DNA of 64,000 nt. Origin: Marchantia polymorpha subsp. ruderalis (lineage: Eukaryota > Streptophyta > Marchantiopsida > Marchantiales > Marchantiaceae). The DNA lies in NCBI GenBank assembly GCA_037833965.1, contig AP031358.1:19786001-19850000 (forward strand), written 5' to 3'. Below the pieces are notes generated by a model. That model was not told the DNA's origin. It worked only from the letters and a program-made list of their open reading frames with translations, and made no database searches. A program made the position numbers and the translations under genes. Shown piece after piece: positions 5,601-57,728 of the stretch (within the stretch, counting starts at the first letter, position 1; every line of letters starts with the position of its first letter).

Positions 5601-7660
5601 TATAATCTGCGTAGGCATAATAAAGCTGAGATCAGCTCGGAGACTTAATATAACATTCTATACGAAAAATGTTCCACGGAAACTGATTTTAAACCCAACA
5701 AGAAGATTGTCTAGTAATGATCTGCAATACTCAGGAGGATTCGAATTTGACATCTTTGTTTTGACGTGCAAATGCCTCTGCCTGGTATATCTTACAGCTC
5801 TAAAGCTTATTTGTTTTGGTTGTCTCCGTTCGTCATCTAACTTTTAGACGACTCCTCGTATTTGAAATTTTATCCAATCGATCTAGAGTATCTAGAATCG
5901 TATTATGTTCATTCCCTCTCAAGTTGGATCACATTTCTCATCCGCAAGGATACAATCATTGTGTTCGTACATATATCTAAGTATGGTCTTCACATTTCTA
6001 TCGGTACTCGTAAGACGTTATGTGTAGTGCATACATTAGCGATTCGCTTGAAAGGTGTCTTGAAAAACATTCACTTTTCGTATGGGCTCTTGAATTTCAA
6101 ACGCCATTCATGATGACCGCATATCATGAAATCAATTCTTGCAACTTCTAAAGGGTCAGCGGGTTGCGAATGTACCGGAGCACATGTGCTAAATCGATCT
6201 TTGGCTAAATCGATCGTCGGTCTTGATTTCTCGTACGGCCATCGTCACAATTACTACAATTTGATCGATATCTCCCAGTCAAAACTACTTTTTTTTCATG
6301 CCTTACGCCCAGACAGAAAAATAGGATAATCAGTTTCTGATTTACTTTGAAAACAAGATTTGGGATAATTAATCGAGATTAATATTGTAGCAATCCAAAA
6401 AAATTAATTCATTTTAGCGAATTCAGTAATTCATTATTGTAGCAATCCAAAAAAAAATTTAAAAAAATTACTGAAGACACCAATGACAAGGAACCCAAGT
6501 GGGAGTGTAAACGTGCTTGACCAAATCTATTCGGAAAATTTTAAAACCTAAGAATGGAAGAACATAATTTAAGACAATAAAAATGCTGAATTATTGAGAA
6601 TATATATTTTACAACAGATCAAGGGAAAAAGATTGTTGAGAATATTGCATGTAAAGTTACATTATCTTGATATAAATTATTGTATACCTTTCTTGTGGAA
6701 CATCCTTATCCATTAATCAGTTTAAGATTGACTGACAGAAAATTACAGAATCTGAACATGGTCCTCTGTATTGAGAGTTGAATGTTTGTTATTATAACAT
6801 GCTGATATGCTAAATAAAAAAAATTGAATTTATTTTAGATTATAAGGATGATGATAATACTATTATATTATTTTAGGATGATTGATGACTCATTCTAACA
6901 GTGGCTGAAGCTCACAATTTTTGGAATTGAATTTAAGATGAATTTTAGCAGGTCATGATGAAAAATCCAAGAGAAATTACCTTTCACGCTTTATAATATA
7001 GAGCTTTCTTGAAATCCAAAAGGGAGTATATTGAATGTTGTAAGAGTCTTTTCTAATAGAAAGCCAGTCTAATGGGAAATATCATCAGAAAATGTTGTGT
7101 TAAAGTACTTGAGCACTTCAAAGATGAGTTACCAGTTTGTCAATGCATCCTATTGACTACTAGAGATAAATAAGGATACCCGAACGATAACATGAGTTCA
7201 TTCAGACCCACTCATTTTCAAGCAGACGATATGAGACTACGTAGTCAAGCATAAGAGATAAAGTCTTTCCTGATATGGTGTACATAGTTCATAATATTAT
7301 GTGTATCGTCTACTTAACAAGGATCATCTACTACTAGTTTTTCCAAAGCAATGGACAATAGGTCTATAGTGAGCCATCAAAATTCCTATAATCCCAATAT
7401 ACGTAACTCATAGAGATCGTAGACAAGTTACTCACTCCCCTGCAAAGAAATGAAATGTTTCTTCAACATTCAATTCAATTAAATTTGCTCGAATCCACTA
7501 GATCAGGTCTCGAGTATGGGCTAGGGATCCTAGAAAGGTGACACATTCCTACGAAAAGCAATGAAATGTTTTTTATTTGGTTAGCACAGGCTGAAATGTC
7601 TCATATCCACTAGATAGGGTCGCAAAAGCCGTTTCGCAAAAGGGTCGGTTGGGAGAAAGT
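5600..7660. other. AT-rich stretch, no gene recognised
   Basis: Short ORFs only. The duplicated phrase GTAGCAATCCAAAAAAA occurs at about 6390 and 6440. Confidence 0.5.
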
Positions 7661-18609: not shown

Positions 18610-19580
18610 TGCCACATGGCGCCGAAGGCGTCTACCGCCGAAGGCCCTTGCCCTGAAGGCGCTTGACCCGAAGTCCGTTGACCCGAAGGCGCTTGACCTG
18701 AAGGTCCTCCCTATCAGTAACTTCCGACACTCATAACTCATTGATGTCTCATTCGTCCCAAGCGTTCTTGGGCTCATTAGAACGAGGATGTCGAGCTCTT
18801 TCCAACGAAACCCTAACCAAGTCAAGGCGTTATGAATTGAGAAAGTTATGAGGAATACACTCTTCTGCCAAAGGCATTCTCCAGCATTGCCGGAGGCGTG
18901 TCCCCGAAGACGCCTGTCGCCGAAGGCGTTGACCCGAAGGCGCTTGAGCCGAAGGCCCTCCCTATCAGTAACTTCCGACACTCATAACTCATTGATCTCT
19001 TATCCGTTCCAAGAGTTCTTGGGCTCGTTAGAACGACCGTGTCGAGTTTTTTCCAACGAGACCCTAACCAAGTCAAGACGTTACGAATTGAGAAAATTAT
19101 AAGGGATTCACTCTTCCGCTGAAGGCCCTTGCCCCTTCGGCGTACCGCCAAAGGCGTCTAACGCCGAAGGCCCTTGCGCTGAAGGAACTCTTCCGCCAAA
19201 GTCACTCCATATCAGTCACTTTCGACACTCATCACTCAGTGATCTCTTATTCGTTCCAATAGTTCTTGGATTAGTTAGAACGAGCGTGTCGAGTTCTTTC
19301 CAACGAGACCCTAACCAAGTCAAGGCGTTATGAATTGAGAAAGTTATGAGGGATTCACTCTTCCGCCGAAGGTGTACCGCCGAAGTCGCTCTACTGCCTA
19401 AGGCCCCCATATCAGTAACTTCCGACACTCATAACTCACTGATCCTTTACGCGTTTCAAGAGTTCTTGGGCTCGTTAGAACGAGCGTGTTGAGCTCTTTC
19501 CAACAAAACCCTAACTAAGTCAAGGAGTTATGAATTGAGAAAGGTATGAGGGGTCTACCGCCGAAGGCGCTCGAAGCGGG
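18610..19580 (-). repeat. Field of CGCCGAAGGCG-type short palindromes
   Basis: Many copies or near copies (GCCGAAGGC, CCGAAGGCGCTTGACC and similar) occupy the spacers at about 18616-18715, 18867-18970, 19109-19205 and 19365-19400, and at 19556. Each can form a GCC/GGC hairpin with a 3-base loop. Confidence 0.8.
18718..19550 (-). repeat. Four imperfect tandem repeats of about 200-250 bp
   Basis: Copies begin near 18718, 18969, 19216 and 19416. Each holds a CTTCCGACACTCAT-type start, GTTCTTGGGCTCGTTAGAAC, CCCTAACCAAGTCAAGG and TTATGAATTGAGAAAG. Spacers between copies are filled by GCCGAAGGC palindromes. A single related copy lies at about 56785-56880 in the plus-strand unit. Confidence 0.8.
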
Positions 19581-19723
19581 TCTTGGAGCATGAACTGCCC
19601 GTTCCATCCCAAGCTTTCGACTGTGGCCTAAGCCCAAAACCCCTTGACTGTACTCAATACTCTTTTAACTCTGGTTTTGCGTACCGATTACTATTTACAG
19701 CTGCTACCGCGGTACTTACTATT

Positions 19724-22133
19724 CTAAAATGTTTTAGTTCTGACGAAAAACAAAAAGTGGGTTACCACAAGCTCTGCCTCGACGTTCGCAATGGCGTCTC
19801 GCGACATCGACAGAAAAGCATCTAACCTCTTCGCGACCCGCTGCCGGCTCCGACTGTCAACCGACATCAATTCCGCCGCACGAGTCTCTAACCCGCGCAG
19901 TGTGATTCTCTCGTGCGCAGCCACTTACTAGTGAGTGTATCCTCTAAGACAGCGGTTCACTTGCTTTGCCAACTCTTCTTGCATGCGATATGTCGCGCGC
20001 CGGTGATCGCCTTCAACCTCTACCAACTGCAGCTCTGCCTCCGCACGCTGCGCTCTCAATTTGCCGCACTGCGATTGCAGGCGACGAATTAACTCCTCAT
20101 CGGCTTGACGTGCGCTCTGACACTGCTCTAGTATACGTGTCTGTCGCACGAGCTCCTCTTACAAGATGCGATTCTGAGCTTGCTCAGAATCGAGTTCCGC
20201 CTCGAGCTTCTCCCGCTGCTTCGCGAATTCCTTCTCCGCTTCGGCCAACTTCTCCTCACGCACCTTGTTGACTGCCTTCTGCAATTTCCGCGAAAGTGCG
20301 AGGTGTCTGCGCAGGGCCTCGTTCTTCAACTTCAAATCCTTGATTGTCTCGTCCATGGAAGCCAACAAGGGACTTGTCATGACCTTGGTCCGCGTCCGAT
20401 TGCGCACCAATTCGACGTAGGACCCCCTATGGCGGGGATCACCATACTTCGCCACCTTGCGATCAAGGTACCGCAGCAGGGGTACCACCTGCTCGCACAA
20501 GACTACTGTCGGCGTGCCTTGCACCGATTCCTCTTCCTGCTCCTCCGAACTCGACTCATCCTCGTCATCCTCCGAATTGAGGATGTCGGTCGCTACAGAA
20601 TTCCCCGGCGATTCCCGGGAGTTGGGTTGCGTGGCTTCTGCTGCCGCGGCCGCCGCTCCACTCCCTGCCAAAATGTCCAATGCGGTGGGAGACCCGTCTC
20701 CCGGCAAGTCCGCTTCTCCTGCCTGATCTGCAACCGCCGAAGGCACACATGTTTCCTCCTTCCGTCCTTCGTCCGTCGCCGATCTCTCACATTGGGCCTG
20801 CGCCGAATGCGCTTGACCTGAAGTCCGTTGAGCCGAAGGCTTCTCCTCACTCCTCTGCTACGCCAAAGGCGCTTGAGCTGAAGGCTCTTGACCCGAAGTC
20901 GAGTCATCAATTGGTACTTGCTCGGGAGTGAAGCACTTGTCCGTCATCGGCACATTCGTCGATGCCGCATGTTGTCTTCCATGACCCGAAGGCCTTCTTG
21001 CTTCCGCCGAAGGCGTCCGTGCCTTCGGTGCAGGGAGGTCCGCTGACCTCTCCGACGTGTGTGCACTCGCATTCTCCCCCGAGGATGGCAAGTTTCTCCT
21101 CTCTGCAGCTCTTCCCGTTTCTACGCTGCTTGCCGGCAAGACGAGCCTGCGAGCCTTCTGCTTGGGACGACTGCAGAGCTCCTGCATCGTCCGCTTCCGA
21201 TTGGGAGCAGCAGCATCGCGTTGCTGGCTCTGCTCCGCGTCTCCTTCCCACTTCTTGGCTTCTGCGGCACTCGTGGTGCGAGCGGTTCTTCCTCCGCCCT
21301 CGGTTGAACTGGTGGCGTGCAGGCGGGCGTTTCGTCTTCGTAAGTATCGACTTCGACGTCCTTCACATATCGGCCCGGATTGCTGCGTGACAGCAATGGA
21401 AATTGTACCCGCTCCGACGCGGTCAAACATCCCATCAACCGATAGAAATTGATCAAGAAGGGGAGAGGTGATTGATCGATCCTCCCTTCTCCTCGAATGC
21501 GTGTTGTCTCGTCGCCTTCCACAAAATGCGAGCCCAATGAATCGGAGCTCCGGACAACGCCAGCTCCACGAACCCCACCTGCCAAGAAGTTATGTAGGTG
21601 GTCCGGTGCGGCTGCAAGAGTTGAATGAGTGCTACCGTGACATTCCTCCACAAGCGATCCTTGTAGTCATGGGTCTTGTACCCGTTCTTGCTCAACTTGC
21701 TGTGCTTGAACAAAGCCCCGAAGGAAGCTTCTTCCTCCTTCGAGACATTGACACTCTCGCACTCGAAAAGAAGATGGCCTTCTTCTCCCGCGCATCTTCC
21801 CAACACCTGCTCCCAGTCATTGACTTCCCATCGCTCCGGGTGAGGTCGGAATCCGCGCGTAGGTTGATCCTTGTCCCGCAGCCACTCTCGTATCATATCC
21901 GGACACACCCAATTCCATCCCCACAGGAAAAAATTGAGTCTCACCGCAGTCAGCTTGCGCTGGAATGCGCGCAACTCATTCTGCCGTAACTTCAGCGGAA
22001 CCATCCGCAGTTGCATAGCCTTTGACATCGCGTTCTTGAACTCAGCCGCGCACGTCAGAAGTTTGCGAACTCTCCGCTCTCTGCCCCCAAGCTTCTTGCA
22101 CGCTGACTCAATCATTCCGCGAGCTCTCCGCAC
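19724..22133 (-). pseudogene. Decayed homologue of the 1039-aa ORF
   Basis: It is broken by frameshifts and stops; homologous pieces lie in several frames (22133-21453, then about 21480-21250, 21250-20858, 20746-20159, 20149-19928 and 19924-19724). The N-terminal piece shares LRMVPLKLRQN, FFLWGWNWVC, NGYKTHDYKDR and RQHAFEEKGG with the intact copy. The later pieces share RPKQKARRLVLPA and VVPLLRYLDRKVAKYGDP, and the same coiled coil. The final residues read out into the start of the next unit (VVTHFLFF), showing that the ORF's own 3' flank is missing here. No function is known. Confidence 0.8.
20730..21030 (-). repeat. GCCGAAGGC palindromes inside the decayed ORF
   Basis: Copies at about 20735, 20800-20895 and 20985-21025 lie in the low-complexity central part of the ORF, parallel to the CGCCTTCGGCG copies in the intact ORF at 59320-59770. 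Confidence 0.7.
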
Positions 22134-22493
22134 TCTCTAGTAAGAACCCTCCGGCTGCGCACTCAGCTGCTGCACGCTCTTCTGCAACAACCCTGCTCGT
22201 CGCAACTCTCTCTTATTTCTCTCCGCCGATTCCCTGCTGCGCGGTCGACGCTCGAGCGAAATCAAAATTGAAATTGCAAGAATGAGACGTCTGCCTTCGG
22301 CGATCAAGATTTCACCGTTCGACACTTGGAAGTGGGAGTCGACCCACTTGAATGCAGCGCCGGCTTGGAGGCGTAACGGCCTCCTTCGCACGCTCGGCTT
22401 CACGCTCCGCCGTTGTGCGAACTCCCACGCCTGAATATTGAATTCGATTCTGCCGTTGTCCGTCGACTTAGCCTTGCTCGCGCATCGCTGAAG

Positions 22494-22784
22494 TGTCATG
22501 TAGTTACGAATCGGCTCACACAGTTTAGACACTTACTATCTTTAGAGGTGAAGTTAGGGTTCGGTCACGAGGGGTATAGAGTCGGGGACGGCTCGAAGAA
22601 CGTTAGTTCTTCGAGTCGAGCCTGGAAGCGTTGGGAGCGTAGAGTGACTTTCCCTTTTGCGTCGACCTGGATTCTCCGAGTGTGGAGTGGGTTGGGCTTG
22701 ACTCATGTTTGTGACGGTGACGGTTTGTTGCCAGTAGGGTAATTGACCGACGGGAATTCCAGTGGGGAATCTCCCGTCTATTTC
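22494..22784 (+). repeat. Terminal repeat part A1 of the methyltransferase element
   Basis: It is about 99% identical to A2 (30740-31030), with three visible substitutions. It contains a perfect 10-bp hairpin CTCGAAGAAC-GTTA-GTTCTTCGAG at 22592-22615. Similarity to A2 stops exactly at 22784/31030. Confidence 0.9.
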
Positions 22785-25700
22785 ACTCGAAGAACTCTCG
22801 ACGTTTTTGTGTGTAATCGTTTTACGTTCCGTTCTGCCTCTTTGTGTTTTCGTCAGGTGTTTCTCTCTTTTGTGGTTTGTTTATACCTTTGGGCAATTTC
22901 TGTATTTGAAAGTCTGAGGAAATCAAGGTTTTAAATTGAGAAATCTGTGCAGAAAGATTCTCAGATTTGATGTTCGGAAGTAGGGATTTTGAAGATTGCG
23001 TCGGAGTCTGAAAACTGAAGTTTCGGGATAGCATTCAGTTTTCGTTCGTGTGGCGTCGAAGGACAGTTGAAGATTATCGAACTACAGTTTGAGTGAGCAT
23101 TAAGAGCCGGACAACGGATTGGAATTGAAAGAACGGGACGACGATTTCTCTCGGTGCTGATCGCTGTGCGGTTTTTGTGACTCCTCGGTGTCTTCCTTGA
23201 GAAGGGAAGGCCGTGAAGTCGCGCAGAATTTGACTTGCTGAAGAAAACAGATTTCGAATCTTACATCAAATGTTGCCGCGCACCCGGACGTCGCTCGCGT
23301 ACAGCACGAGGGAGAGGGAGGAGGTCGAGGCTGCGTGCCTGGCTCAGCCTGAGAAACAGACGCCGCTTGTGGCCGCAGCAATTCTGGGGTATCTTGTCTC
23401 GTACTTCTCTTCTCGGTGAATGGCGGTTTCTATAATTATGTAAAAAGCTAGAATCGTCGATTTCCGTCCTATTTGCTTCTGGAGAGAAAGGATCAATTTT
23501 TTTGGAGTAAAATTTCTTTCTACACCTTCAGTGTTCTTTCTGTCATAACCTGTTGAACACTCGGTCTTGAAATTTGACCATGTGCTCACTTTGAGGCAAG
23601 GTCCAATTTGGATGTGAGATTCGAAGGTTTTGATTGGCCAGAGCTATAGAAATCACTTATCCTTTCGGTAGTGACTTGAGTGCTATGAAACACTCTATCT
23701 GAGCATTCAACAGTAGTAGACATATGGGATCGAGAAACAGTCCGATGGACTTCATCTTCAATTGCCTACTAGTCACACTCAAGCAATTGGCATCTCTCCT
23801 CGAGGCCAGTCCTGGTAAAGTCACGTGTTCGGAGTTCAAGGAGACGAGCGTGCGTGGAAAGCAAAGATTCAAGAACTAAGATTGCGACTGGAGATAGAGA
23901 GATTTCGGCCAGCGATTGTGAAGAATAGGAATGCTTTTAGAGCACACGAGACTGTGATATATAGAAATATGGTTAGTGGATTTTGAGCGGCTAGCTGCAC
24001 GGGAAATTTGTGCACGCAGCGACTCCCATGGCCTTCATAAATCATCTCGACGCGGTAGCAGGCCCTGATTTGGTAGAGAGTTGCCACAGCAAATCGTTAG
24101 CAATCGAAGAAATTTCAAGTGCTGATTTGCGTGCAGAAAACTTGGAGATAACCCGCGCGAGTGAGTTAGTCTTCCTCCCCCCTCCGAGTGGCAGTGCTTG
24201 AGCGGCCGAGCCAGCCCCGAACGGCAGGGCAGGAAAGGTAGGGCCCGAGCGCAGTCCGGATGCTGAGTGGCAAGGGCAAGGCGGCTGTAATCTCTCCCCC
24301 ACTCGCTTGCTCGTTGCAGTTGGATCGAGGGCATGTACAGCTAAAGTTGGGGTGCAGCGGAGGTGGTAGTCGGCCAAGCGGACCAATCGCGGTAAGCAAG
24401 AAAATGGTGGTGGGAGGAGAACCACGTAAGGAGGGCTAACCGTGACAGAGTGTAACCACGTTTAACAAGGTGAACTGCAGTTGGCAGGTCAAAACGTGCA
24501 GATCAACTGTAGTCAGCATGGATTCGTTTGAAGTCAAGAGCGAAAAGAACACAAGGCTCTCCACGATCGAGAACAGGGAGTGTGGCACTTGAGGCAGAAA
24601 GCAAGCGGAAGGAAGTAAGTTTGTCAGTTAGAAGGTCGACTGCAACGGAGCACTGCCCCGAGGAGGAGTGGCTGCAGACCCCTTCCCTCCCGACCTTACT
24701 TGGCGTTTACAGCTCGGGTGTAAGAGCTGTGGTGTTTGGGATGAGCCCTGAGATGGAGGGGATACTCTTAGTACAGAATACCTCAGTTAAGTTAAGTACA
24801 GTTACCTCTTTAAGTTTTATCATATTAGATTTTCAGAGGTAGCTTACAGCAGGCATTTTTCTGGATTTTTCGAATTGTAGTCAACAAGGAGTTAGTGAGG
24901 TTTTGAATTCAGTAGTTGAAGAGAATATGTTCATAAACAGATTTATAAAACTATTAAAACTATCTAGTGGTTTTATAGTTGAATTGGTGTCTAGTTTCCA
25001 TTTAGTGGTCTAGTTTACAGATATCCTATGAACGATCCTTGTACACAGTGGAGTTTTGACTTGTGAAGGGAAAATGCTGCTTGGAGGAAAGGTAGACGAC
25101 AGTGATATACAAGAAATCCAGACAGTGGAGGTCGTCAGCACCGAGGAACGTGATCAGGAGCAGGAGGTGACAGTGAAGCCTCAAGTAGAAGAGAATCTGG
25201 TAAACCCTGTTGTGGTAGACGAAAAAGATTCCGGGTTAGATTGGGACGAGGCACTAGCCGTGGAAAAACTTCTAGAGGAATCCGGCCTAGAGTACAGGGT
25301 ATGTGAGGATGAGTTACTAGACCTTCCGCAGGATATTGCTGACCATTTGAGAGATGTTCAGTATGTTCAAGACTGTCTTTCAGAAGAAATTCTTGTGCTA
25401 GAGAAATTTCTTGATAGTCTTCCAAAGGATTGATAGCAAATACTTGTAGCGTTTAGACAGGAGGTACTGAAGGGATCGGGAGTTTGCACCCGGTCTCACT
25501 ACCTGTAAACGTGATGTTTTGAAAGCATTGTAAATATATATATGACGTAGTCAATATATTGAGCTTTCAGTGTGTAGTGTGTTTGTTGAGGGGCAGTGTG
25601 ACCCCTGTGTGAAAAAAAAAAGTAAAAAAAAAGTTTTCAAACAATTTTTGTTTGCAATTTGGAGGAAGAGGGCACCATAGGCACTGGAGGCCCACGTAAA

Positions 25701-26307
25701 TGGAGGGCGATGGAGATCGAATCGGGATCGCGAAGCGATGCGATGTCCCGTGTGTGTTGTCTTGTTTTGTGCTGTGTTTCCTTTAGACTGGAGAGTCGTT
25801 GCTAGCTGGTTGCTTGTGTTTGGATCCTCTCCAGTCTTGCTTCCTGGTGCGCGCCCGTGTAGGGGTGACGCTGATTTCCGGAGTAGTTTTACTCATGTGT
25901 GCTGGCGATAGGGGGCTGGACTTGATCACCGGCCGGTCTATCTATGTTTCTCTTACGGTGAGACTGGAGTGATGACCAGTAGACCGTGAGAGTCTGCTTG
26001 CTGTGATGACAGGTTAGGTTGCCCATACCCCTTAGCTAGTAGGGCTAGAGTGTCTCAGTGCAGCACAACGTCAAGGGCGGATTGGGTTATTGGGTGGAGA
26101 TCTGGCAGTGGTGCCAGTTGAGGTCTCGTCATCACGGAGCAGTCTAGTGGTCCTGTTGAGGACCGCGAGGGATTTACGCGGAGTGGGTTGAGGTATCGTT
26201 CACCTTCACCTATTTCGCCAGTTGTTGCGGAGCAGGACCAGAGTGTTGTAGACACAGAGTCTTTGGTGGTGATATCGTCTAGTGTCTCAACCCCATTGAT
26301 TTGGGAC
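22785..26307 (+). other. Long leader between repeat A1 and gag
   Basis: About 3.5 kb without a recognised retroelement domain. It contains the acidic ORF (25074-25433), A-rich runs at 25610-25632, and a strong potential hairpin with 11-base perfect arms AGACTGGAGAG/CTCTCCAGTCT at 25785-25795 and 25827-25837, about 470 bases before the gag ATG. No clear tRNA primer-binding site follows A1 (the next bases are ACTCGAAGAACTCTCG). Confidence 0.5.
25074..25433 (+). CDS. Acidic 119-aa accessory ORF in the leader of the methyltransferase element, function unknown
   Basis: The ATG at 25074 opens a strongly acidic, largely helical protein that includes VDEKDSGLDWDEALAVEKLL and ends EEILVLEKFLDSLPKD. 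I do not recognise a family. It lies between repeat A1 and gag, on the same strand as gag and about 870 bases before the gag ATG. Downstream are a TATATATA stretch (about 25535) and A-rich runs (25610-25632). That layout is compatible with a captured cellular transcript end or an extra element gene. It could also be a chance ORF. Its low hydrophobicity and lack of simple repeats favour real coding, but only weakly. Confidence 0.35.
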   Translation: MLLGGKVDDSDIQEIQTVEVVSTEERDQEQEVTVKPQVEENLVNPVVVDEKDSGLDWDEALAVEKLLEESGLEYRVCEDELLDLPQDIADHLRDVQYVQDCLSEEILVLEKFLDSLPKD

Positions 26308-27759
26308 ATGGACGGGATGTACAGGGCCTCGAAGGGCCCTCGACGTTACTCTGGTGCAGTGGGCACCATCGAGCTTGATGATTTTATTCAGGAGTTCGAC
26401 ACGTGGTGTGATATGCAGTTTATGCGTAACCCCACGTTGTTTACACCCTTCTTTGCATGGAAGGGGTTATTCCAGCATTTAGAGGGGCCTCCCATGGACG
26501 ATTATCATGAGTTTGGGAGAGAGTATGCTGCAGAGATTGATGCATGGAGACGGCATTGGTCTCCGAACTACTCATCCATTACCCAGGGTGGTGTGGGTAC
26601 CAGTGGAGCTGCGAGTATCGGCATCAGTGGAGGTGCGAGTAGTAGCATCAGCGAGGGTACCAGTGGAGCAGTTGGCGCAACTGGTACTAGTACCAGCAGC
26701 GGTACTGTTAGCATTGCCGGTGGCAGCACGAGGGGAGATGCTAGTGGCGTACCTTCGTTTAGCCCCATTCCTGAGTTCTTCCAGAGATTGAGGAAGAATT
26801 ATCAGGGGGTGAAAACGGAGAAGTTGAGGAGCCTCCAGGAGTTTGAGCGGAAGACTGGTGAGAGTCTTCGTGAGGCATACACTCGTATGCGACGGCTCAT
26901 CTCAGTTACTCACGGTGTAATTGAGGCACAGGCTGTCCAGTACTGGTATCGGATCCTGGACAGAGAGTTGCGGAGGAGAGTGCGTGATGCTACTCTCATG
27001 AGCGACTCATCACCCACATTAGCCCATGTGTTTGCTCTTTCTGAGAAGATTGAGCTTAACATGGTGGAGGAGAGGGTGGTGACGTCTACATTTGCGAGGG
27101 ACACGACTACTAATTCGCGTATCCCACATAGCCCAGCACAGTCTCGCCCCATAAGTGGGAGTCGTGGAGGTCATACACGACATCCTTCAGGTCACAGAGA
27201 GTCTAGTGCGCGGCCACCACTGCGTTCATTTTCGGGCCAGCCACAAGGACCGTCATGTTGGACATGCGGAGGTAGCCATATGAGGAAGGATTGTCCCCAG
27301 GAGCGAGAGGGACAAACTCCACAGGCTAGGCCACAGCCGGCACAGGTGACCTGTGATCATTGTCATCGACCGGGTCACCCTCGAGAGCGTTGCTTTGACC
27401 TTCATCCTGAGTTGAGATCTGGGGGTAGAGGTCGTGGAGGTGATGCTCCACGAGGCCGAGGTGGTCGAGGTGGCAGAGGCAGTAGAGGTGGTAGAGGTGG
27501 TAGAGGTACTGGGGCCATTGAGCGCACTGCAGCGAGTGCTACTTCCGCCATAGAGAGCGCTATGGCTGCTCGGATTGAGCAGTTGGAGCAGAGACTTGCT
27601 GCTATGGCTGGTCTGGGGGCGAGCACTTCCACATCTTACAAGGGAGAGGATTTCTCCTATTTGGCCAGTGCAGCACAGGTTGAGGCATCAGTTGCAGTGA
27701 CCAGAGGTGGTGCTCGCACTTCAGAGCCGCGTGGTGCGACTGTGGAGTTGGACCCTTAG
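26308..27759 (+). CDS. gag: Gag polyprotein of the methyltransferase-bearing retroelement
   Basis: The protein has 483 aa from the first ATG at 26308; the frame is open further upstream but only with a TTG. The first ~250 residues form a helical retrotransposon-Gag-like region (for example FERKTGESLREAYTRMRRL), interrupted by a Gly/Ser/Thr-rich linker with many GTSG-type repeats. Two zinc knuckles follow: CWTCGGSHMRKDC (CX2CX3HX4C) and CDHCHRPGHPRERC (CX2CX4HX4C). Next come an Arg-Gly-rich RGG tract and a short heptad-like helix near RIEQLEQRLAAMAGLG. Such proteins package the element RNA into virus-like particles in the cytoplasm. The frame is intact, unlike pol downstream, and it ends at a TAG before the protease frame opens. 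Gag from this copy may therefore still be made. Confidence 0.85.
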   Translation: MDGMYRASKGPRRYSGAVGTIELDDFIQEFDTWCDMQFMRNPTLFTPFFAWKGLFQHLEGPPMDDYHEFGREYAAEIDAWRRHWSPNYSSITQGGVGTSGAASIGISGGASSSISEGTSGAVGATGTSTSSGTVSIAGGSTRGDASGVPSFSPIPEFFQRLRKNYQGVKTEKLRSLQEFERKTGESLREAYTRMRRLISVTHGVIEAQAVQYWYRILDRELRRRVRDATLMSDSSPTLAHVFALSEKIELNMVEERVVTSTFARDTTTNSRIPHSPAQSRPISGSRGGHTRHPSGHRESSARPPLRSFSGQPQGPSCWTCGGSHMRKDCPQEREGQTPQARPQPAQVTCDHCHRPGHPRERCFDLHPELRSGGRGRGGDAPRGRGGRGGRGSRGGRGGRGTGAIERTAASATSAIESAMAARIEQLEQRLAAMAGLGASTSTSYKGEDFSYLASAAQVEASVAVTRGGARTSEPRGATVELDP

Positions 27760-27801
27760 AGGGGTGAGGGTGGACGTCAGTCTAGACTTCCCCAGTCCTT
27801 T

Positions 27802-28565
27802 TTGTTGTCAGAGGTAGGTAGCAGTTCATCTATGAGACCTGCACCGCCTAGTGACACTAGAGTGAGAACTGAGGTTCTTACATCATTTGTTGTGAACGCA
27901 GACGTGCCATCTAGTGCAGTGATGCGGATGGCCACTTCAGTCTTGCGATCTCCATTGTTTTCAGCCACGGAGTTGATAGACTCTGGTATTGATTTGGCTC
28001 GAGTATTTCGGGTAGCAGCCACGTCATGTGAGCATGGGAGAGTCGCTGCTACGAGTGCCGAAATACGTGAGGATACAGTTGAGGACCCATCCTCAACGTC
28101 TGCATTGTTCGAGGAGACGACTTGGCAGGCCGCAGCGGCGAGGATGGAATCCTTACCAGCTCGCCCAGCCATTGATCGCGAGAGTATTGTTCCTGGTGTA
28201 TGTATGGTGGACAACCGAAGTGGTCTATTTCGGTTAGTGAGTTCTACTGGACAGGTGTATGTCCCAGCCAGAGTTTTGTTGGATTCTGGTGCACAGCCCT
28301 TGATGTTGGGCAAGGCTGCATGCATTAGTTTGGGCATTCGGAGGTCAGAGTTGGAACCTTGCCCATTCCAGATCCAGACATCCCTTGGTGGCGCCAGCAA
28401 CAGGTCTTACTTTATGACGAGGAGAGCATAGCGGTGCAGTTGAGGCATGATCACCCTCATGATAGCTCGCAGTTTGGAGTTCGTGCTGTGGTTACATCAG
28501 CAGAGTCATATGATGTGCTTGTTGGTGGAGTGGTGTTATACCCGATGGGCTTTCGGATGGACTAG
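27802..28565 (+). pseudogene. Retropepsin-like aspartic protease region (frameshifted)
   Basis: The first part (27802 to about 28420) has the retropepsin active site VLLDSGAQPLMLG with the catalytic Asp codon at 28282-28284, followed by ISLGIRRSELEPC. The frame then ends just after SYFMTRR. The homologous continuation (HDHPHDSSQFGVRAVVTSAE, then YDVLVGGVVLYPMGFRMD) lies in another frame up to the TAG at 28563-28565. The break is therefore a frameshift near 28420, not a natural end. In an intact element this domain would cleave Gag-Pol during particle maturation. The sequence beyond the TAG (TETAAYRPGWQSGDG) continues the same conserved stretch and leads directly into the methyltransferase frame. 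Confidence 0.75.
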
Positions 28566-28571
28566 GACGAT

Positions 28572-29585
28572 ATGCAGTCCCCGTCCAATACGGAAACTGC
28601 CGCATATCGTCCTGGTTGGCAGTCCGGAGATGGACGTCTGAGCGAGCTGCCAGTGAGATTTATTTCTCGGGATCGACCTCTTGGATCTTCATCAGCGGTC
28701 TTGGCATCTGTTGCGGGTTTTAGCGGAGTGCTTACCTGGCCCGATGACTTGTTGGAGGGGAACATGTCTGCCGACGATACCTCAGTCTACGAGGATGTGG
28801 AGGAGGTTGTGAGTTTCACAGCGGCGGTGACTTCACCCTTAGATGTTCCACTGTGGAGTTCGTGCCAAGCACTACAGTTGGAAGCTGATAGTTTGGTAAA
28901 AAAGGCTTGGAGTGAAGCCTCTTTACCAGCAGAGCCAGAGAAGGCTTCAGCTGATCGGCTAGTTGGTGGTTCTAGCGCATTGTCTCCATTGGTTACTACA
29001 CCTATTGCATGGGAGTATTCCTCAGAGGGCGTTTGTTTGCTGGATCTTTTTGGTGGGATCAGCACCGGTTTGGCTGCGGTGTTGCAGTCAGGTATTATCG
29101 TACGGAGATACTTGTATGTGGAGAAGGACGAGACTGCACGTCGAGTCTCTTCACGACATGTTGCACAGTTGATGCGGCGTTTTTCTTCGTTGTTGCCGCG
29201 ATCAGCTGTCCGAGGATTCCAGAAGGCGTTGCCTTCAGACATTTCGTTGCTGGGGGCGCCAGACCTTGACCGCGTTGGCCATATTGATATGGTGATTGCG
29301 GGCTGGCCATGTCAGGGACACACACGCGCTGGACATGGGACAGGGTTGCGTGATCCCAGATCTCGGATGTTTTGGGAGATGATGCGAGTGTTACGTCATC
29401 TCCAAGTGCAGCAGACACGTTCTCCAGCATACATTCTGGAGAACGTACCATTATTGGGTGACACTCGGGCCCAGTTGATGGCGAGTGTTCATCAAGTCCG
29501 AGCATGGATTGGATCAGCAGTACTGTTGGATGCTGCGCAGGTTGGATCCCGGGCTCATCGTGCACGTTTGTGGTGCACCAGCTGA
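28572..29585 (+). CDS. DNMT3-like C5-cytosine methyltransferase domain of the retroelement, truncated C-terminally
   Basis: The frame is 337 aa. Residues 1-150 are linker that follows the protease. From about residue 155 the C5-methyltransferase motifs appear in order. Motif I is LLDLFGGISTGL (S-adenosylmethionine binding), followed by RYLYVEKDETA, the acidic ribose contact. Motif IV is IAGWPCQG with the catalytic Cys at about residue 247. Motif VI is YILENV with the catalytic Glu at about 290. Motif VIII is SRAHRARLW with the Arg pair at about 330-332. The pairing of GIxTGL with AHRAR resembles DNMT3 rather than CMT, MET1 or the rearranged DRM enzymes. The frame stops within six residues of motif VIII, so the target-recognition domain and motifs IX-X are missing and the sequence passes straight into integrase. 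This copy is probably inactive alone, although its visible catalytic residues are intact. Confidence 0.82.
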   Translation: MQSPSNTETAAYRPGWQSGDGRLSELPVRFISRDRPLGSSSAVLASVAGFSGVLTWPDDLLEGNMSADDTSVYEDVEEVVSFTAAVTSPLDVPLWSSCQALQLEADSLVKKAWSEASLPAEPEKASADRLVGGSSALSPLVTTPIAWEYSSEGVCLLDLFGGISTGLAAVLQSGIIVRRYLYVEKDETARRVSSRHVAQLMRRFSSLLPRSAVRGFQKALPSDISLLGAPDLDRVGHIDMVIAGWPCQGHTRAGHGTGLRDPRSRMFWEMMRVLRHLQVQQTRSPAYILENVPLLGDTRAQLMASVHQVRAWIGSAVLLDAAQVGSRAHRARLWCTS

Positions 29586-30448
29586 GGTGTTGACCGATCA
29601 GGGAACGGAGTTTCAGGTCTTGTGCGACAAGGCACTGATTGATCATCGGACCACGTCGTGAGATCATCCAGAGGCGAATGGTTTAGCTGAACGTGTTGTA
29701 CAGACGGTGAAGAGGGCGTTGCGCAAGTATGGCCTGCAGAAAGGTCATCTTGGGGACTGGGATATCCAGTTACCGTGGTTGGCCATGGGATATCGGTTCA
29801 GTCGGAAGGCAGGCATCCTTGACTTCCTTCTCACCATATTTTCTATTGTACGGCCGAGATCCAGACTTGCCAACATCGATTCGTCGTGAGTCTAGCGAGG
29901 TGGTGAACCTTGATGACCCGAATATGCGGGTGAGAGTGTGTTCTCAACGTGCAGAGCTCTTTCGGAGAGTTATGCCTGCAGCGTTTGAAAATCTTGCGAT
30001 TGCTCAACATAGAGATACGTTGCGGTATGCAACCATTCGGGGAGGAGGTTATCGACCATCAATTCGTAGATTCCATGTGGGAGACTACGTCTATCTACAG
30101 CAGACTGCACCGACGACATTGGATGTGACGGCGGGACGCACCATCTTGCGGGTGCGGGAGGTGTTACCTTCTGGAGTTCTCCTGTTGGAGGGTCGTGACG
30201 GCGTTGTTTGGAAGGATCATGTGCGCAATTGTGCGCCATGCCACCTCCCAAACGTAGATGGCACTATGGACCCAAGCTTAGCAGTAGTACGTGCTGGCTT
30301 GAGGTGTATGCTGTGTGGGTCAGCAGGTCAGGCGACCCGTATGTTGGTGTGTGATAGGTGTTCTAGGGGATGGCACATGTTGTGCCTGACTCCGCCTATC
30401 TATGTTATTCCGGCTGGACGATGGGTTTGTCCTCGATGTACTTCATAG
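29575..30448 (+). pseudogene. Ty3/gypsy-type DDE integrase C-terminal half fused to a PHD finger
   Basis: The integrase sequence starts abruptly at GAPAEVLTDQGTEFQ, with the second catalytic Asp codon at 29596, and continues as DHPEANGLAERVVQTVKRAL, with the catalytic Glu codon at 29689. A TGA at 29659-29661 sits between them, where relatives have Arg. A 4-bp direct duplication GGCA (29808-29815) shifts the frame; the remainder (SLTSFSPYFLLYGRDPDLP, then a DNA-binding tail with FHVGDYVYLQQ) reads on to 30448. The last ~50 residues form a complete C4HC3 PHD finger: CMLC, CDRC, GWHMLC, WVCPRC (codons about 30305-30439). PHD fingers read histone H3 tails, so in this position it would tether integration to marked chromatin (inference). 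The integrase N-terminus and first catalytic Asp are absent, so this copy cannot integrate on its own. Confidence 0.8.
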
Positions 30449-30607
30449 GGGTAGATGACTTGATCTTCACAGGTTATGAATTGCAGATAGGCGACTAACG
30501 ATGGGGCGACATAGCACCCGGCCTACTGGTTCGCGCACCCACGAAGGTGTATAGCATGTAGTTGTAGATAGGGCTACCTGGGAGTCAGAGAGACCTGACC
30601 GCCAGCT

Positions 30608-30618
30608 AGGGGGGCGAG
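30608..30618 (+). promoter_or_regulatory. Putative polypurine tract for second-strand priming
   Basis: AGGGGGGCGAG lies immediately before TGTGACATTTG, the position expected for a retroelement polypurine tract next to a 3' LTR that begins TG. This would make the LTR order B then A. Confidence 0.45.
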
Positions 30619-30738
30619 TTGTGACATTTGAGTGTGTACTCTCTCGCGCCTTATATGTGTGTATGTGTGTGTGCGTATGTGTATGTGAGTAGCATGTCAG
30701 CGATGTAGAGTGTATGGCGATATGTATTCGCACGACAG
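30617..30738 (+). repeat. Repeat part B1 (internal copy) preceded by a purine-rich tract
   Basis: 122 bases that I read as identical to B2. It starts AGTTGTGACATTTGAG just after a purine-rich run (30608-30618) that resembles a polypurine tract. It contains a TATA-like TTATATG at about 30651. Its last bases with the start of A2 form the perfect palindrome GACAGCTGTC. Confidence 0.85.
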
Positions 30739-30739
30739 C

Positions 30740-31030
30740 TGTCATGTAGTTACGAATCGGCTCACGCCGTTTAGACACTTACTATCTTTAGAGGTGAAGT
30801 TAGGGTTCGGTCACGAGGGGTATAGAGTCGGGGACGGCTCGAAGAACATTAGTTCTTCGAGTCGAGCCTGGAAGCGTTGGGAGCGTAGAGTGACTTTCCC
30901 TTTTGCGTCGACCTGGATTCTCCGAGTGTGGAGTGGGTTGGGCTTGACTCATGTTTGTGACGGTGACGGTTTGTTGCCAGTAGGGTAATTGACCGACGGG
31001 AATTCCAGTGGGGAATCTCCCGTCTATTTC
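30740..31030 (+). repeat. Terminal repeat part A2 of the methyltransferase element
   Basis: Direct copy of A1 at an offset of 8246 bases. It is preceded by B1 with a two-base spacer and followed, after one base, by B2. Confidence 0.9.
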
Positions 31031-31031
31031 T

Positions 31032-31153
31032 AGTTGTGACATTTGAGTGTGTACTCTCTCGCGCCTTATATGTGTGTATGTGTGTGTGCGTATGTGTATG
31101 TGAGTAGCATGTCAGCGATGTAGAGTGTATGGCGATATGTATTCGCACGACAG
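31032..31153 (+). repeat. Repeat part B2 (outer copy) at the right end of the element
   Basis: Second copy of the 122-base B repeat. It ends CGACA at 31152, followed by the target duplication GAAG; the last base is shared with that duplication. Confidence 0.85.
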
Positions 31154-31156
31154 AAG

Positions 31157-52780: not shown

Positions 52781-54994
52781 TCAAACAGCAGCCAGAACTT
52801 TGGGAGACTCTTTGGGCAAGTCAGACGTTCCGGGGAATTGGCCGATATCATGGCCATCCACGCTGTTGTACAAATTCTGGAGCCCAACACTGAATTCTTC
52901 CGGGTTTTGATCTCCTTGATCGCGGTAGTTGGCGATGTGTTCTGCAAGAGCCATGCCACTCAAAGCCGCTGCCTCCAGACTCGATCCCAGTAGCCAATCC
53001 CCACAAATTCCCACCCGGCCTTGTGCATCAAATATACAGGGTATCTCTGGTGTGTTGGTGGGCAGAGCTGCGCCCCAGAGTTGCAGACGACTGTAAACCG
53101 GCGCTGGCAACGATCCTTCTGATAATCCGAGAGCAGTTTCGACCCCGAGAAGCATGTCCCGGGTCACTTTCTCAGCTTTCGCATGAGGGATGCTTTCCTG
53201 TGGAACTTTGTTCTTCTTTCCGTAAGGGCCCGTACTGAAGAAAGTCCAGCACTGCGGAGACTGCTCAGCGCCATTCAGCTTGGCGGAATTGTTGCCCATC
53301 CATGACAGAGAGTTGACTCCTTGTACGAACGCTCCTTCGAAAGGGGCCGAGGGCAGAGGCTCCTCGAAAGCAGCCAGCAGGGCCCAGATGGAGCTCAATT
53401 CGAGTCGCTTCATCTGGCGAGCAATTTGTGCCACTCCCGCCGGAGCCAAGAGACGATTCGCACAAATGCCGTTGTGTGCAATAACCACAGCGTCGAACTC
53501 ACCTTGAGGTTTTTTGTTTTCGCTCAATGTCCAGCGTCCTTGCTGAGCGGTCATTCTACTGATCCAGCACGGTCTCCTCACCTCTATTTTGGTCGCCTGC
53601 GACACAATGTGGTCGGCCAAGTACCTCATTCCATTCGTGCCCACATACCTCGTGGCGGCAGGAAGCTCGGTGTACTCACCACCGGCTTGCAGGTTCCCAA
53701 TGCTCCCTTTCCATTCCTTCACTGCTCCCTCGGAGATCCAGCGATCTACCAGCTTCTGGAAACGGGGGTCGGTCACGGTGAAAAACTGTGCTGCGTGGTC
53801 GAATTCCAAGCTCTTCGAACCGCGCTGGACCACAGACCTCGTGGCCATCCGCCCTCCCAGACCGTGCTTCCCCGTGTCGAAAACCGTCGATTTGATGCCC
53901 AATTCTTGCAGTGTCAGAGCACAGACTAGACCCGACATACCTCCGCCGAGAATGGCGATGTTGGGGTTCTTGTTCATGGGGGTTTGGAAATTCACCGGCT
54001 CCACCACGGGCTTCTTCTTCTTCTCCACCTCCTCGACCCACTCTCTCCGCCCCGTTCTGTCATACTGCGGTGCTCCCCCGGAGGACTTTCCCGCTCCGCC
54101 TCTCTCGTCTCTGAATGACCTCGCCGTCCCAGAATTCGACGGTGCCCCTCCGGAAGAGCTGGAATTCCTCGCTCCGCTGGCGTCTGATCTCCCGTCTGCT
54201 CCGCCCTGACCTCGGCCACTGGAAAACCTACTGGGCCCTCTTTCGCTCGACCCAGCAGCAGCAGCAGCAGCCGGGACGGGCTTCCCTCCATTCATCCTCC
54301 GCTCGTAGGCCTCCCTGTTGCGCGCGGTGGCGTCTGCTCTGCCACCGGAGAAGCTTCTGGATTGAGCATTGTCATCCTCATCGTTTCTGGAAGCTCTCGG
54401 CGCCCACCTTCCTGCTCCCTCGTTGCGATTTTGGTACGACCCTGCGCCGGGAGCCCTCCTTTCTCCGCTACTTCGCATCTGATATCCGTCCCTGTCTCTG
54501 CTGCTATCACTAGAAGAAGAATTCGGTGCGCTAGAGCGCGCAATTTCTTTGGGACTTTTGCGACCAGCGAAGCTTTTCACGGTCACTTCGCCATCTCCCT
54601 CGTCGTCCGAGTCCCACTCGTAGCGAAATTCTTCCGCCTCCGCCGGGAATCTTCTCGCAAGCCCACTCTTCAAGGAAGAAATGTCCGGTTTGAACGACCC
54701 AGGCTCACCATTCGCCGAATCCCTTCGATCTTTTCGACTAGCCATGCCCCTGATGCTCCCTAAATTGAAAGCGCCGTTTCCATAGAACTCGAAATTGGAC
54801 CCCAAATTTCGTCGTCCTCGAACTCTCGTAATTCTCAGTCCTGTGACCGAATACGAAGTCACAGTCGCTGCGCAGGAGGAGGAGGAGGAGGAAGAGGAGG
54901 GGGAGCAGGAGGAACTTCCAAACAACAGACACTGCGATGCGCGGGACGCAGACACAGCCAATTGCTGCTGGCCAGCAGCTACCAGAGTCCGCAT
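52781..54994 (-). CDS. FAD/NAD(P)-binding renalase-like oxidoreductase with long disordered N-terminal extension
   Basis: This is one uninterrupted 737-aa reading frame. Residues about 345-375 hold a Rossmann dinucleotide-binding motif (IAILGGGMSGL, then an acidic residue in VFDTG), followed by GLGGRMATR. The core includes LEFDHAAQFFTVTDPRF, and the C-terminus has the second flavin-contact motif VGICGDWLLGSSLEAAALSG (about 660-685). This matches the plant family typified by Arabidopsis At3g04650, annotated as FAD/NAD(P)-binding oxidoreductase and related to animal renalase. Its substrate in plants is not established. The first ~60 residues are Ser/Arg-rich and could be a plastid transit peptide (inference). 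Residues about 110-335 are low complexity, rich in Arg, Ser and Gly, and predicted disordered. The plant relatives I recall are nearer 480 aa, so the extension is unusual. Alternative in-frame starts are Met84 (MASRKDRR) and Met340 just before the Rossmann fold. I kept the first ATG because the frame stays open to it. Confidence 0.85.
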   Translation of the reverse strand: MRTLVAAGQQQLAVSASRASQCLLFGSSSCSPSSSSSSSSCAATVTSYSVTGLRITRVRGRRNLGSNFEFYGNGAFNLGSIRGMASRKDRRDSANGEPGSFKPDISSLKSGLARRFPAEAEEFRYEWDSDDEGDGEVTVKSFAGRKSPKEIARSSAPNSSSSDSSRDRDGYQMRSSGERRAPGAGSYQNRNEGAGRWAPRASRNDEDDNAQSRSFSGGRADATARNREAYERRMNGGKPVPAAAAAAGSSERGPSRFSSGRGQGGADGRSDASGARNSSSSGGAPSNSGTARSFRDERGGAGKSSGGAPQYDRTGRREWVEEVEKKKKPVVEPVNFQTPMNKNPNIAILGGGMSGLVCALTLQELGIKSTVFDTGKHGLGGRMATRSVVQRGSKSLEFDHAAQFFTVTDPRFQKLVDRWISEGAVKEWKGSIGNLQAGGEYTELPAATRYVGTNGMRYLADHIVSQATKIEVRRPCWISRMTAQQGRWTLSENKKPQGEFDAVVIAHNGICANRLLAPAGVAQIARQMKRLELSSIWALLAAFEEPLPSAPFEGAFVQGVNSLSWMGNNSAKLNGAEQSPQCWTFFSTGPYGKKNKVPQESIPHAKAEKVTRDMLLGVETALGLSEGSLPAPVYSRLQLWGAALPTNTPEIPCIFDAQGRVGICGDWLLGSSLEAAALSGMALAEHIANYRDQGDQNPEEFSVGLQNLYNSVDGHDIGQFPGTSDLPKESPKVLAAV

Positions 54995-57445: not shown

Positions 57446-57728
57446 GTTGAATTTTTGTCCGACATGCGGACGCACGCGTCAAGGCAGAAGGAGATTGGCC
57501 GAAGGGCGGTACGAACAAGTGTACCGCGCAAGGCGGAAAACTCGCCTTCGGCGCTACGCCCCCATGTCCGCAGGGCGACACGCTCGCGGAGTTCAAATCC
57601 GCCAATTCGAGCGTGAGAGTTTAATCGACGACGGCGGAGCGTGAAGCCGCGCGTGAGAGCGAAGACCGTTCCAGCGTACAGCCGGCGCGGCCATCAAGTG
57701 AGACGTTCTTCACGACCAAGAGACGACC

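What the first reader, a model, noticed from the sequence alone, without database searches (positions are those of the whole stretch)
26308..30448. A gypsy-type retroelement that joins a DNMT3-like DNA methyltransferase to a PHD finger
Seen: gag with two zinc knuckles, a DSG protease, C5-methyltransferase motifs I, IV (PCQ), VI (ENV) and VIII (AHRAR), a DDE integrase end and a C4HC3 PHD finger, all on one strand inside one insertion with terminal repeats. Known: capture of cytosine methyltransferases by retrotransposons has been reported from dinoflagellates and charophyte algae, where self-methylation of new copies was proposed; I do not know of a described land-plant case combined with a PHD reader. 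Inference: the element could write methylation on its own DNA and use PHD binding to choose or mark its chromatin target, echoing the ADD-methyltransferase layout of host DNMT3.
Basis: partly seen in the sequence, partly recalled or inferred. Interest (0 to 1): 0.92.

Follow-up and report, generated by a model that had tools for sequence, protein, structure and literature searches.

The report
Liverwort retroelement with own DNA methyltransferase
The sequence is a broken copy of a large family of liverwort jumping genes that encode a DNA-methylating enzyme of their own and a histone-reading finger, a kind of element so far reported from algae, here with several features that I did not find described.

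Summary
The window is Marchantia polymorpha; 22494-31152 is one Ty3/Gypsy element with gag, protease (PR), a DNMT3-type cytosine methyltransferase (MTase), an integrase (IN) remnant and a C-terminal PHD finger. This copy is dead: an internal deletion removed the MTase C-terminal part, reverse transcriptase (RT), RNase H (RH) and the front of IN. The MTase matches at least 119 genomic places, this one included; 26 have an uninterrupted Gag-PR-MTase frame. Intact copies read Gag-PR-MTase, an in-frame UAG in a readthrough context, then RT-RH-IN-PHD. dN/dS of the MTase between two subfamilies is 0.145. The repeats are not plain LTRs but split direct repeats (A-internal-B-A-B), yet 16 of 18 copies examined have exact 4-bp target duplications. 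A self-complementary site follows A1; one relative (L001) shares this layout. MTase relatives occur in other liverworts, Sphagnum and green algae; in a sister clade whose named members are green algae, the MTase sits between RH and IN. The closest known element is KnitGypsy-Dnmt3 of Klebsormidium. Most likely the MTase is packaged and methylates new copies while the PHD steers IN; neither activity was tested. MTase and PHD are not one DNMT3-like enzyme.

The parts
22490..22493 (.). left 4-bp target site duplication GAAG (right copy 31153-31156)
   Evidence: flanks printed
22494..22784 (+). repeat A1, left end of the element (TGTCATG...); holds a hairpin, arms 22592-22601 and 22606-22615
22785..22796 (+). 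12-nt site complementary to the 3' arm of the hairpin in A; putative self-primed primer-binding site
25074..25433 (+). acidic leader ORF, 119 aa, no Pfam match; found by tblastn in 7 of 10 fetched copies and open in those 7
26308..27759 (+). gag with two zinc knuckles (frame open from 26122); ends at a stop that the relative P0003 does not have
27760..28431 (+). aspartic protease segment (LLDSGA), same frame as gag; the frame then breaks
28566..29585 (+). linker and DNMT3-type MTase, motifs I, IV, VI, VIII; truncated
29571..29580 (+). join of the internal deletion, about 10 bp overlap between MTase and IN parts; about 2.9 kb missing relative to another copy
29581..30270 (+). remnant of DDE integrase (from the LTDQG part on) and its C-terminal domain, partly out of frame
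30305..30439 (+). C4HC3 PHD finger at the C-terminus of the IN ORF (stop 30446-30448)
30607..30616 (+). polypurine tract-like sequence just left of B1
30617..30737 (+). repeat B1
30734..30743 (+). palindrome GACAGCTGTC at the B1-A2 join
30740..31030 (+). repeat A2 (3 differences from A1)
31032..31152 (+). repeat B2, right end of the element (...CACGACA), identical to B1

Best explanation
A defective copy of a multi-copy Ty3/Gypsy family of Marchantia. Shown by sequence: intact copies encode Gag-PR-MTase, an in-frame UAG followed by CAACCA, then RT-RH-IN-PHD; the MTase catalytic residues are conserved across relatives; repeats are A1-internal-B1-A2-B2; insertions carry 4-bp target duplications. 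Inferred, in order of confidence: (1) Pol is made by occasional readthrough, so the MTase is made in Gag-like amounts and enters the particle; (2) the RNA primes its own reverse transcription by pairing its 5' end with the site right after A1; (3) the MTase methylates the double-stranded cDNA or the fresh insertion, so that a new copy starts in the methylated state of resident copies; (4) the PHD finger at the IN tail binds a histone tail and biases where the copy lands; (5) the integrated form is a circular permutation of the reverse-transcription product, IN cutting at the palindrome at the B|A join.
For: 119 MTase places in the genome including this one (119 of 615 candidates scored), 26 of them with an uninterrupted frame of 1348 aa or more. 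ORF1-UAG-CAACCA-ORF2 in 9 of 10 fetched copies: the 6 with an intact ORF2 and 3 more; contig L001 has UAG CAATCA; UAG-CAR-YYA is the readthrough consensus (one passage of PMC3542737). DNMT3 type: profile best match DNMT3A 2.7e-24, then DNMT3B 6e-22, a plant 'DNA methyltransferase' 4onj 8e-15 (a DRM, recalled), DRM2 7e-12, tRNA-C38/DNMT2 entries from 3e-5; predicted fold of a relative closest to DNMT3A/B. Catalytic Cys in 216 of the 223 MTase segments with a residue there (257 segments aligned). Median dN/dS 0.145 over 56 between-subfamily pairs. IN-PHD-only search: 112 of 120 listed hits (of 200) also hold the MTase in the same ORF. Split repeats: B-A-B as a unit at 40 places; 4-bp duplication in 16 of 18. 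Self-complementary site exact in the window and 6 of 9 copies; same layout in L001.
Against: No data on enzyme activity, histone binding, transcription, readthrough or methylation were available here. In yeast the Klebsormidium relative gave no methylation (called inconclusive by its authors; passage of PMC5890265). CpG depletion is mild (0.74-0.81 against 0.91 for the rest of the window) and host methylation would do the same. Among 6 young copies pooled dN/dS is only 0.19-0.36, with PHD at 0.356 on 52 codons. The start of the RNA is not known, and 3 of 9 copies have no exact self-complementary match. Two of 18 copies show no target duplication, and those copies were picked by good repeat matches, not at random. 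The A2-B2 join is nearly constant (20 of 26), which does not favour joining of free ends.
Confidence: 0.62

Rival explanations
1. The MTase acts on host chromatin rather than on the element: it changes methylation of host genes or competing elements, and the PHD brings it to chosen chromatin.
For: DNMT3 type and conserved catalytic residues; in the MT-after-RT clade MTase and PHD are in one ORF on either side of the IN core.
Against: In Marchantia and L001 MTase and PHD are separated by an in-frame stop, and a protease lies between Gag and MTase.
Confidence: 0.12
2. The MTase fold is kept mainly as a DNA-binding or structural part of the particle, not as an enzyme.
For: In the MT-after-RT group motif IV Pro is replaced in 64 of 86 rows with a residue (Glu in 44) and 4 of 86 lack the Cys; five listed elements in two small clades have no MTase.
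Against: Cys kept in 216 of 223; the motif VI Glu, motif VIII and motif IX residues are also mostly kept; dN/dS 0.145.
Confidence: 0.12
3. Chance chimera: a host methyltransferase fragment fell into a retroelement at this one locus.
For: The window copy is truncated and frameshifted.
Against: 118 other places with the MTase, B-A-B ends at 39 others, MTase plus Gypsy domains in Sphagnum fallax P0020 and in algal proteins; the host DNMT3 (L072) is read over more than one exon and lies outside the cluster of 30 element MTases.
Confidence: 0.01
4. The element is a DIRS-type tyrosine-recombinase element, as its A-B-A-B repeats suggest.
For: Repeat order A-coding-B-A-B.
Against: DDE integrase domains rve and H2C2 and no phage-integrase domain in the Pfam scan of the L001 ORFs and P0023; exact 4-bp target duplications. 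The Marchantia copies were not scanned for a tyrosine recombinase by profile.
Confidence: 0.03

Closest known systems
KnitGypsy-Dnmt3 of Klebsormidium nitens (de Mendoza et al. 2018, PMC5890265; parts 1-2 of 7 and passages seen)
   Same: LTR Gypsy element with an intronless DNMT3-type MTase in the polyprotein, repeats arranged as in DIRS, purifying selection on the MTase
   Different: Here land plants (Marchantia; MTase relatives in Calypogeia and Sphagnum). PHD finger (word PHD absent from that paper's main text; figures not held), readthrough UAG, 4-bp target duplications and a self-complementary primer site are not mentioned for KnitGypsy in what I saw. Its sequence was not compared here
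SymbioDIRS-Dnmt3 and SymbioLINE-Dnmt (same paper)
   Same: retroelements that encode a cytosine MTase; A-coding-B-A-B repeats in the DIRS type
   Different: tyrosine recombinase or LINE machinery; dinoflagellates
Chromoviruses (Ty3/Gypsy with chromodomain; passages of PMC6317226)
   Same: a chromatin-reader domain at the integrase C-terminus (position recalled)
   Different: PHD finger instead of chromodomain; that survey's main text has 0 occurrences of PHD, methyltransferase and Marchantia
Tf1-type self-priming elements (mechanism recalled; self-priming predicted for 12% of plant elements in PMC6317226)
   Same: RNA 5' end complementary to a site just after the left repeat
   Different: combined here with split direct repeats
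Host DNMT3 (Marchantia locus L072; human DNMT3A/B)
   Same: catalytic domain type
   Different: the 30 element MTases tested form one cluster apart from both; no ADD or PHD fused to the MTase ORF in Marchantia

Membership tests
Ty3/Gypsy retroelement | Gag, protease, then RT-RH-IN order with DDE integrase | tested here: met
   L001 and P0023: RVT_1, RNase H, H2C2, rve; Marchantia ORF2: RT then IN then PHD by local profiles, motifs in order RT-RH-IN-PHD. The window copy itself has lost RT and RH
Ty3/Gypsy retroelement | two full long terminal repeats | tested here: not met
   A1-internal-B1-A2-B2 in the window and in 9 of 9 fetched copies with the left end held
Ty3/Gypsy retroelement | short target site duplication | tested here: met
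   4 bp in 16 of 18
DIRS-type element | split direct repeats | tested here: met
DIRS-type element | tyrosine recombinase, no target duplication | tested here: not met
   DDE integrase and no phage-integrase domain in L001 and P0023, 4-bp duplications
DNMT3-type MTase | catalytic domain closest to DNMT3 among C5-MTases, motif order not rearranged | tested here: met
DNMT3-type MTase | methylates cytosine in DNA | not testable with these tools
   no assay
KnitGypsy-Dnmt3 kind | Gypsy element with Dnmt3-type MTase and DIRS-like repeats | tested here: met
KnitGypsy-Dnmt3 kind | sequence clusters with the K. nitens element | not tested
   no hit named Klebsormidium among those listed (lists of 32 and 33 were capped at 120)
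PHD finger | C4HC3 zinc pattern | tested here: met
   PF00628 8e-11; PDB matches to MLL3, CHD4, KMT2D, KDM5B fingers
Chromovirus | integrase chromodomain | tested here: not met
   no chromodomain by Pfam in the window frames, L001 or P0023 proteins

The most novel reading that the evidence does not exclude
A Ty3/Gypsy lineage spread across green algae, liverworts and mosses that (a) packages its own DNMT3-type MTase and methylates its cDNA before or as it integrates, and (b) integrates from a joined-end, circle-like intermediate: reverse-transcription landmarks define the repeat as B-A, but IN cuts at the palindrome inside it, so that the genomic copy is circularly permuted (A-internal-B-A-B) and still has a precise 4-bp target duplication.
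Probability: 0.3. Interest if true: 0.92.

Novelty: new variant of a known kind. Interest (0 to 1): 0.74.

Why it matters
Marchantia is a genetic model plant, so the open question why some retroelements carry the type of enzyme that usually silences them becomes testable in a land plant. MTase and PHD occur together in Marchantia and in relatives whose named members are green algae, which points to an old, maintained partnership rather than a recent capture in one alga. Split repeats together with target duplications also ask how a DDE integrase can use a permuted DNA. Practically, some element pieces are named as MTase genes in bryophyte protein records.

Tried and rejected
Viral contigs: the A1 profile scan matched 25 pattern stretches, none a relative. 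Genome contigs gave one locus, L001, titled a cyanobacterium; I read it as a mis-binned eukaryote because it holds a complete-looking element of this family with 127 identical end bases. A normal LTR reading was rejected because A1 lacks B and B-A-B recurs at 40 places. I expected the A2-B2 join to be scrambled if made by end joining; it is mostly constant (20 of 26 identical, one not read, against 23 of 26 for B1-A2), so the circle model rests on repeat order, target duplication and priming landmarks only. MTase relocation versus two captures could not be decided: the quick MTase tree rooted on DNMT3A puts some MT-before-RT rows at the base, but the outgroup branch is long, and the careful tree of 32 rows leaves this open and does not recover the bryophyte-plus-L001 group as one clade.

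Rows dropped: one search used 109 representatives (drawn from 161 near-complete MTase segments and a list of rows I wanted in) plus DNMT3A; one search used 60 of 93; one search used 30 of the rows plus two host sequences; one search used 18 of 22 candidate copies (L002, L005, L008, L009 did not give the full frame), 2 of 10 extra copies had no usual right end. The 10 extra copies were chosen from the best A matches.
Full report
WHAT IS THERE. The host is Marchantia polymorpha: the best protein match, Mp_8g15430 (P0001), is 100% identical after rounding over the MTase stretch (I see one difference) and ends at the same residues as the broken MTase frame here, so it is probably the gene model of this same insertion in the reference. 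The window is G000:C9:19786001-19850000 of a 241-Mb assembly in 9 contigs. The element runs from 22494 to 31152. Frames on the + strand: gag 26122-27759 with two zinc knuckles, protease 27760-28431, MTase 28566-29585 (PF00145, 1.2e-10), IN tail with PHD 29711-30448 (PF00628, 8e-11). The MTase frame is 86% identical (284 of 331) to P0003, an uninterrupted 1278-aa Marchantia protein that runs Gag-protease-MTase and continues past the point where the window copy breaks off.

DEFECTS. Compared with the genomic copy on C9 near 14.09 Mb, about 2.9 kb is missing and the two sides overlap by about 10 bp. Lost are the MTase part with motifs IX and X, RT, RH, and the front of IN. Gag and protease are split by a stop, and the protease-MTase linker changes frame. 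This copy cannot encode a complete MTase, RT or IN. A1 and A2 differ at 3 of 291 positions, B1 and B2 at none of 121; in 9 other copies A1/A2 show 0-4 mismatches over about 285-292 positions. The insertions look young; no absolute age is claimed.

THE FAMILY IN MARCHANTIA. The MTase query matches 119 separate places, the window included (119 of 615 candidates scored, so a lower bound); 26 of 119 sit in an uninterrupted frame of at least 1348 aa and 6 more in a frame of that length with a stop in the match. By identity to the window MTase most places fall at about 90-97% and a second set at 85-88%. In the ten fetched copies the intact layout is ORF1 Gag-protease-MTase, then an in-frame TAG, then ORF2 of 1042 aa with RT, RH, IN and PHD as its last residues. 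The 6 copies with an intact ORF2 all read TAGCAACCATTG there, 3 more show TAGCAACCA, and one has a different stop context. This fits the UAG-CAR-YYA readthrough consensus (one passage of PMC3542737). An acidic ORF of 116-119 aa lies between A1 and gag; tblastn finds it in 7 of 10 copies, and it is open in those 7; no Pfam match.

SELECTION AND ENZYME TYPE. Between the two sets (14 against 4 copies, 56 pairs) median dS is 0.409, dN 0.059, dN/dS 0.145 (range 0.119-0.170); within the larger set the median is 0.294, within the smaller 0.219. In 6 copies with both ORFs intact, pooled dN/dS is MTase 0.305, RT-RH 0.345, IN 0.191, PHD 0.356 on 52 codons, so the MTase is held about as firmly as RT. Against solved structures the profile of seven element MTases scores DNMT3A 2.7e-24, DNMT3B 6e-22, the plant entry 4onj 8e-15 (a DRM, recalled), DRM2 7e-12, HaeIII 3e-8 and tRNA-C38/DNMT2 entries from 3e-5; no entry named DNMT1 or CMT is among the 57 with E up to 1. 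A model of relative P0028 (mean pLDDT 64, pTM 0.70) matches DNMT3A and DNMT3B entries (one of them DNMT3C) in the 50 rows shown, TM-score normalised to isolated catalytic-domain chains about 0.71-0.78. The catalytic Cys is kept in 216 of 223 MTase segments with a residue at that column (106/109, 82/86, 22/22, 6/6 by group; 257 segments aligned).

RELATIVES ELSEWHERE. The MTase profile search listed 120 of 256 hits, among them Calypogeia fissa, Sphagnum troendelagicum and tenellum, and Marchantia paleacea; Sphagnum fallax came, with MTase, RT and IN in one protein. PHD was not checked in Calypogeia or Sphagnum DNA. With local profiles 112 of these 120 hold the MTase in the same ORF, all 120 IN and PHD, 96 RT. 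P0023 itself had been found through its MTase region, so this is not an unbiased sample of PHD-bearing Gypsy elements. Of the 8 without MTase, three group with the Marchantia-type ORF2, whose MTase is in ORF1; the other five form two small clades inside the MTase-bearing group, which I read as losses.

TWO LAYOUTS. Over 263 proteins, 90 read RT-MT-IN-PHD, 25 MT-IN-PHD, 8 RT-IN-PHD, 7 MT-RT, 1 MT-RT-IN, 1 MT-IN and 131 MTase only. In the quick MTase tree all MT-after-RT rows fall in one clade (SH-aLRT 99), and bryophyte, L001 and similar rows in another (97), with a few MT-before-RT and MTase-only rows outside both. The careful 32-row tree supports the MT-after-RT clade (100/99) but leaves the others as an open fork. 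The RT+IN-PHD tree separates Marchantia, L001, P0205, P0224 and P0231 from the MT-after-RT group (100). MTase and backbone trees thus show no sign of free swapping between the two groups. Whether one capture was followed by a move, or two captures occurred, stays open. The Marchantia host DNMT3 (L072) and human DNMT3A lie outside all 30 element MTases tested; with two outgroups this does not tell which host lineage was the donor.

REPEATS AND INTEGRATION. The B1-A2-B2 end recurs as one unit at 40 places including this one (40 of 784 candidates scored), and 9 of 9 fetched copies whose left end was held have A1-internal-B1-A2-B2 (the tenth had no A1 in the fetched stretch). Ends are TGTCATG and CACGACA. 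Exact 4-bp target duplications are present in the window (GAAG), in 8 of 9 copies and in 7 of 8 further copies with both ends: 16 of 18 in all, against a chance rate of 1/256 each. Split repeats are a DIRS trait; target duplications are a DDE integrase trait. The B1-A2 join is the palindrome GACAGCTGTC in 23 of 26 places and the A2-B2 join is the same in 20 of 26. Left of B1 lies a polypurine-like tract. Right after A1 lies a 12-nt site complementary to the 3' arm of a hairpin within A, exact in the window and 6 of 9 copies; shuffled sequence gave 10 nt or more in 3 of 1000. These landmarks would make B-A the ordinary LTR, so the genomic form looks circularly permuted. That step is inference.

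A RELATIVE WITH THE SAME LAYOUT. L001 is a 9285-base contig with 127 identical end bases, as expected of a circularly assembled repeat. It holds Gag-protease-MTase, TAG CAATCA, then RT-RH-IN-PHD, a purine tract at 6939-6946, GACAGCTGTC at 7051, a 12-bp hairpin at 7228-7255 and a 13-nt complement of its loop and 3' arm at 7415-7427. RNA from the hairpin loop to this site folds with the 5' end paired to the site in both elements (z -2.81 and -3.49); the start points were chosen by me, so the folds illustrate rather than prove it.

HOW IT PROBABLY WORKS. Packaging of MTase with Gag, self-priming, methylation of the new copy and PHD-guided landing are the most economical reading of this anatomy; readthrough and priming rest on conserved signals, methylation and targeting only on domain identity and selection. 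The PHD finger matches PDB fingers of MLL3, CHD4, KMT2D and KDM5B with similar scores, so its histone target cannot be read off.

COMPARISON. De Mendoza et al. 2018 (PMC5890265; parts 1-2 of 7 and passages seen) describe KnitGypsy-Dnmt3 with Gypsy domains and repeats 'the same as that of a DIRS retrotransposon'; its main text has no occurrence of PHD or Marchantia. A 2025 survey mentions retrotransposon DNMT3s as reported before in streptophytes and dinoflagellates (PMC12344493, passages). Searches for a land-plant or PHD case found none; the library lacks most subscription papers. Hence: a known kind of element, in a wider host range and with features that I did not find described and that can be tested.

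Noticed in passing
window 57702-60845 (+) and 21456-22136 (-): Related long frames (shared stretch RMVPL-L-QN-LRAF, LLWGWN, by eye), probably two copies of another repeat family; not identified.
   Followed up: no
window 18620-20899: Short CGCCGAAGGCG-like repeats, 10 listed copies.
   Followed up: no
window 52784-55054 (-): Long frame of 757 aa that looks like a host FAD/NAD-binding amine oxidase-like gene (judged by eye).
   Followed up: no
window 25074-25433 (+): Acidic leader ORF upstream of gag, 116-119 aa and open in the 7 of 10 copies that have it, no Pfam match; function unknown.
   Followed up: partly
G000 contig C1 (5.6 Mb): MTase matches are denser there, 8 in 5.6 Mb (1.43 per Mb) against 0.23-0.64 per Mb on the other contigs; C1 may be a sex chromosome (guess).
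   Followed up: no
L001 1-9285; P0036: Relatives of this eukaryotic element are filed under cyanobacterial and Obscuribacterales genome bins.
   Followed up: partly
P0002, P0050, P0075, P0112: UniRef names element pieces of Marchantia and Sphagnum 'DNA (cytosine-5...)-methyltransferase', which could inflate host MTase counts.
   Followed up: no
MT-after-RT group of proteins: Motif IV reads EC instead of PC in 44 of 86 members with a residue there, while the Cys is kept in 82 of 86.
   Followed up: no
P0148, P0162, P0169, P0199, P0210: Some polyproteins of this family also carry PF01585 (G-patch, name recalled).
   Followed up: no
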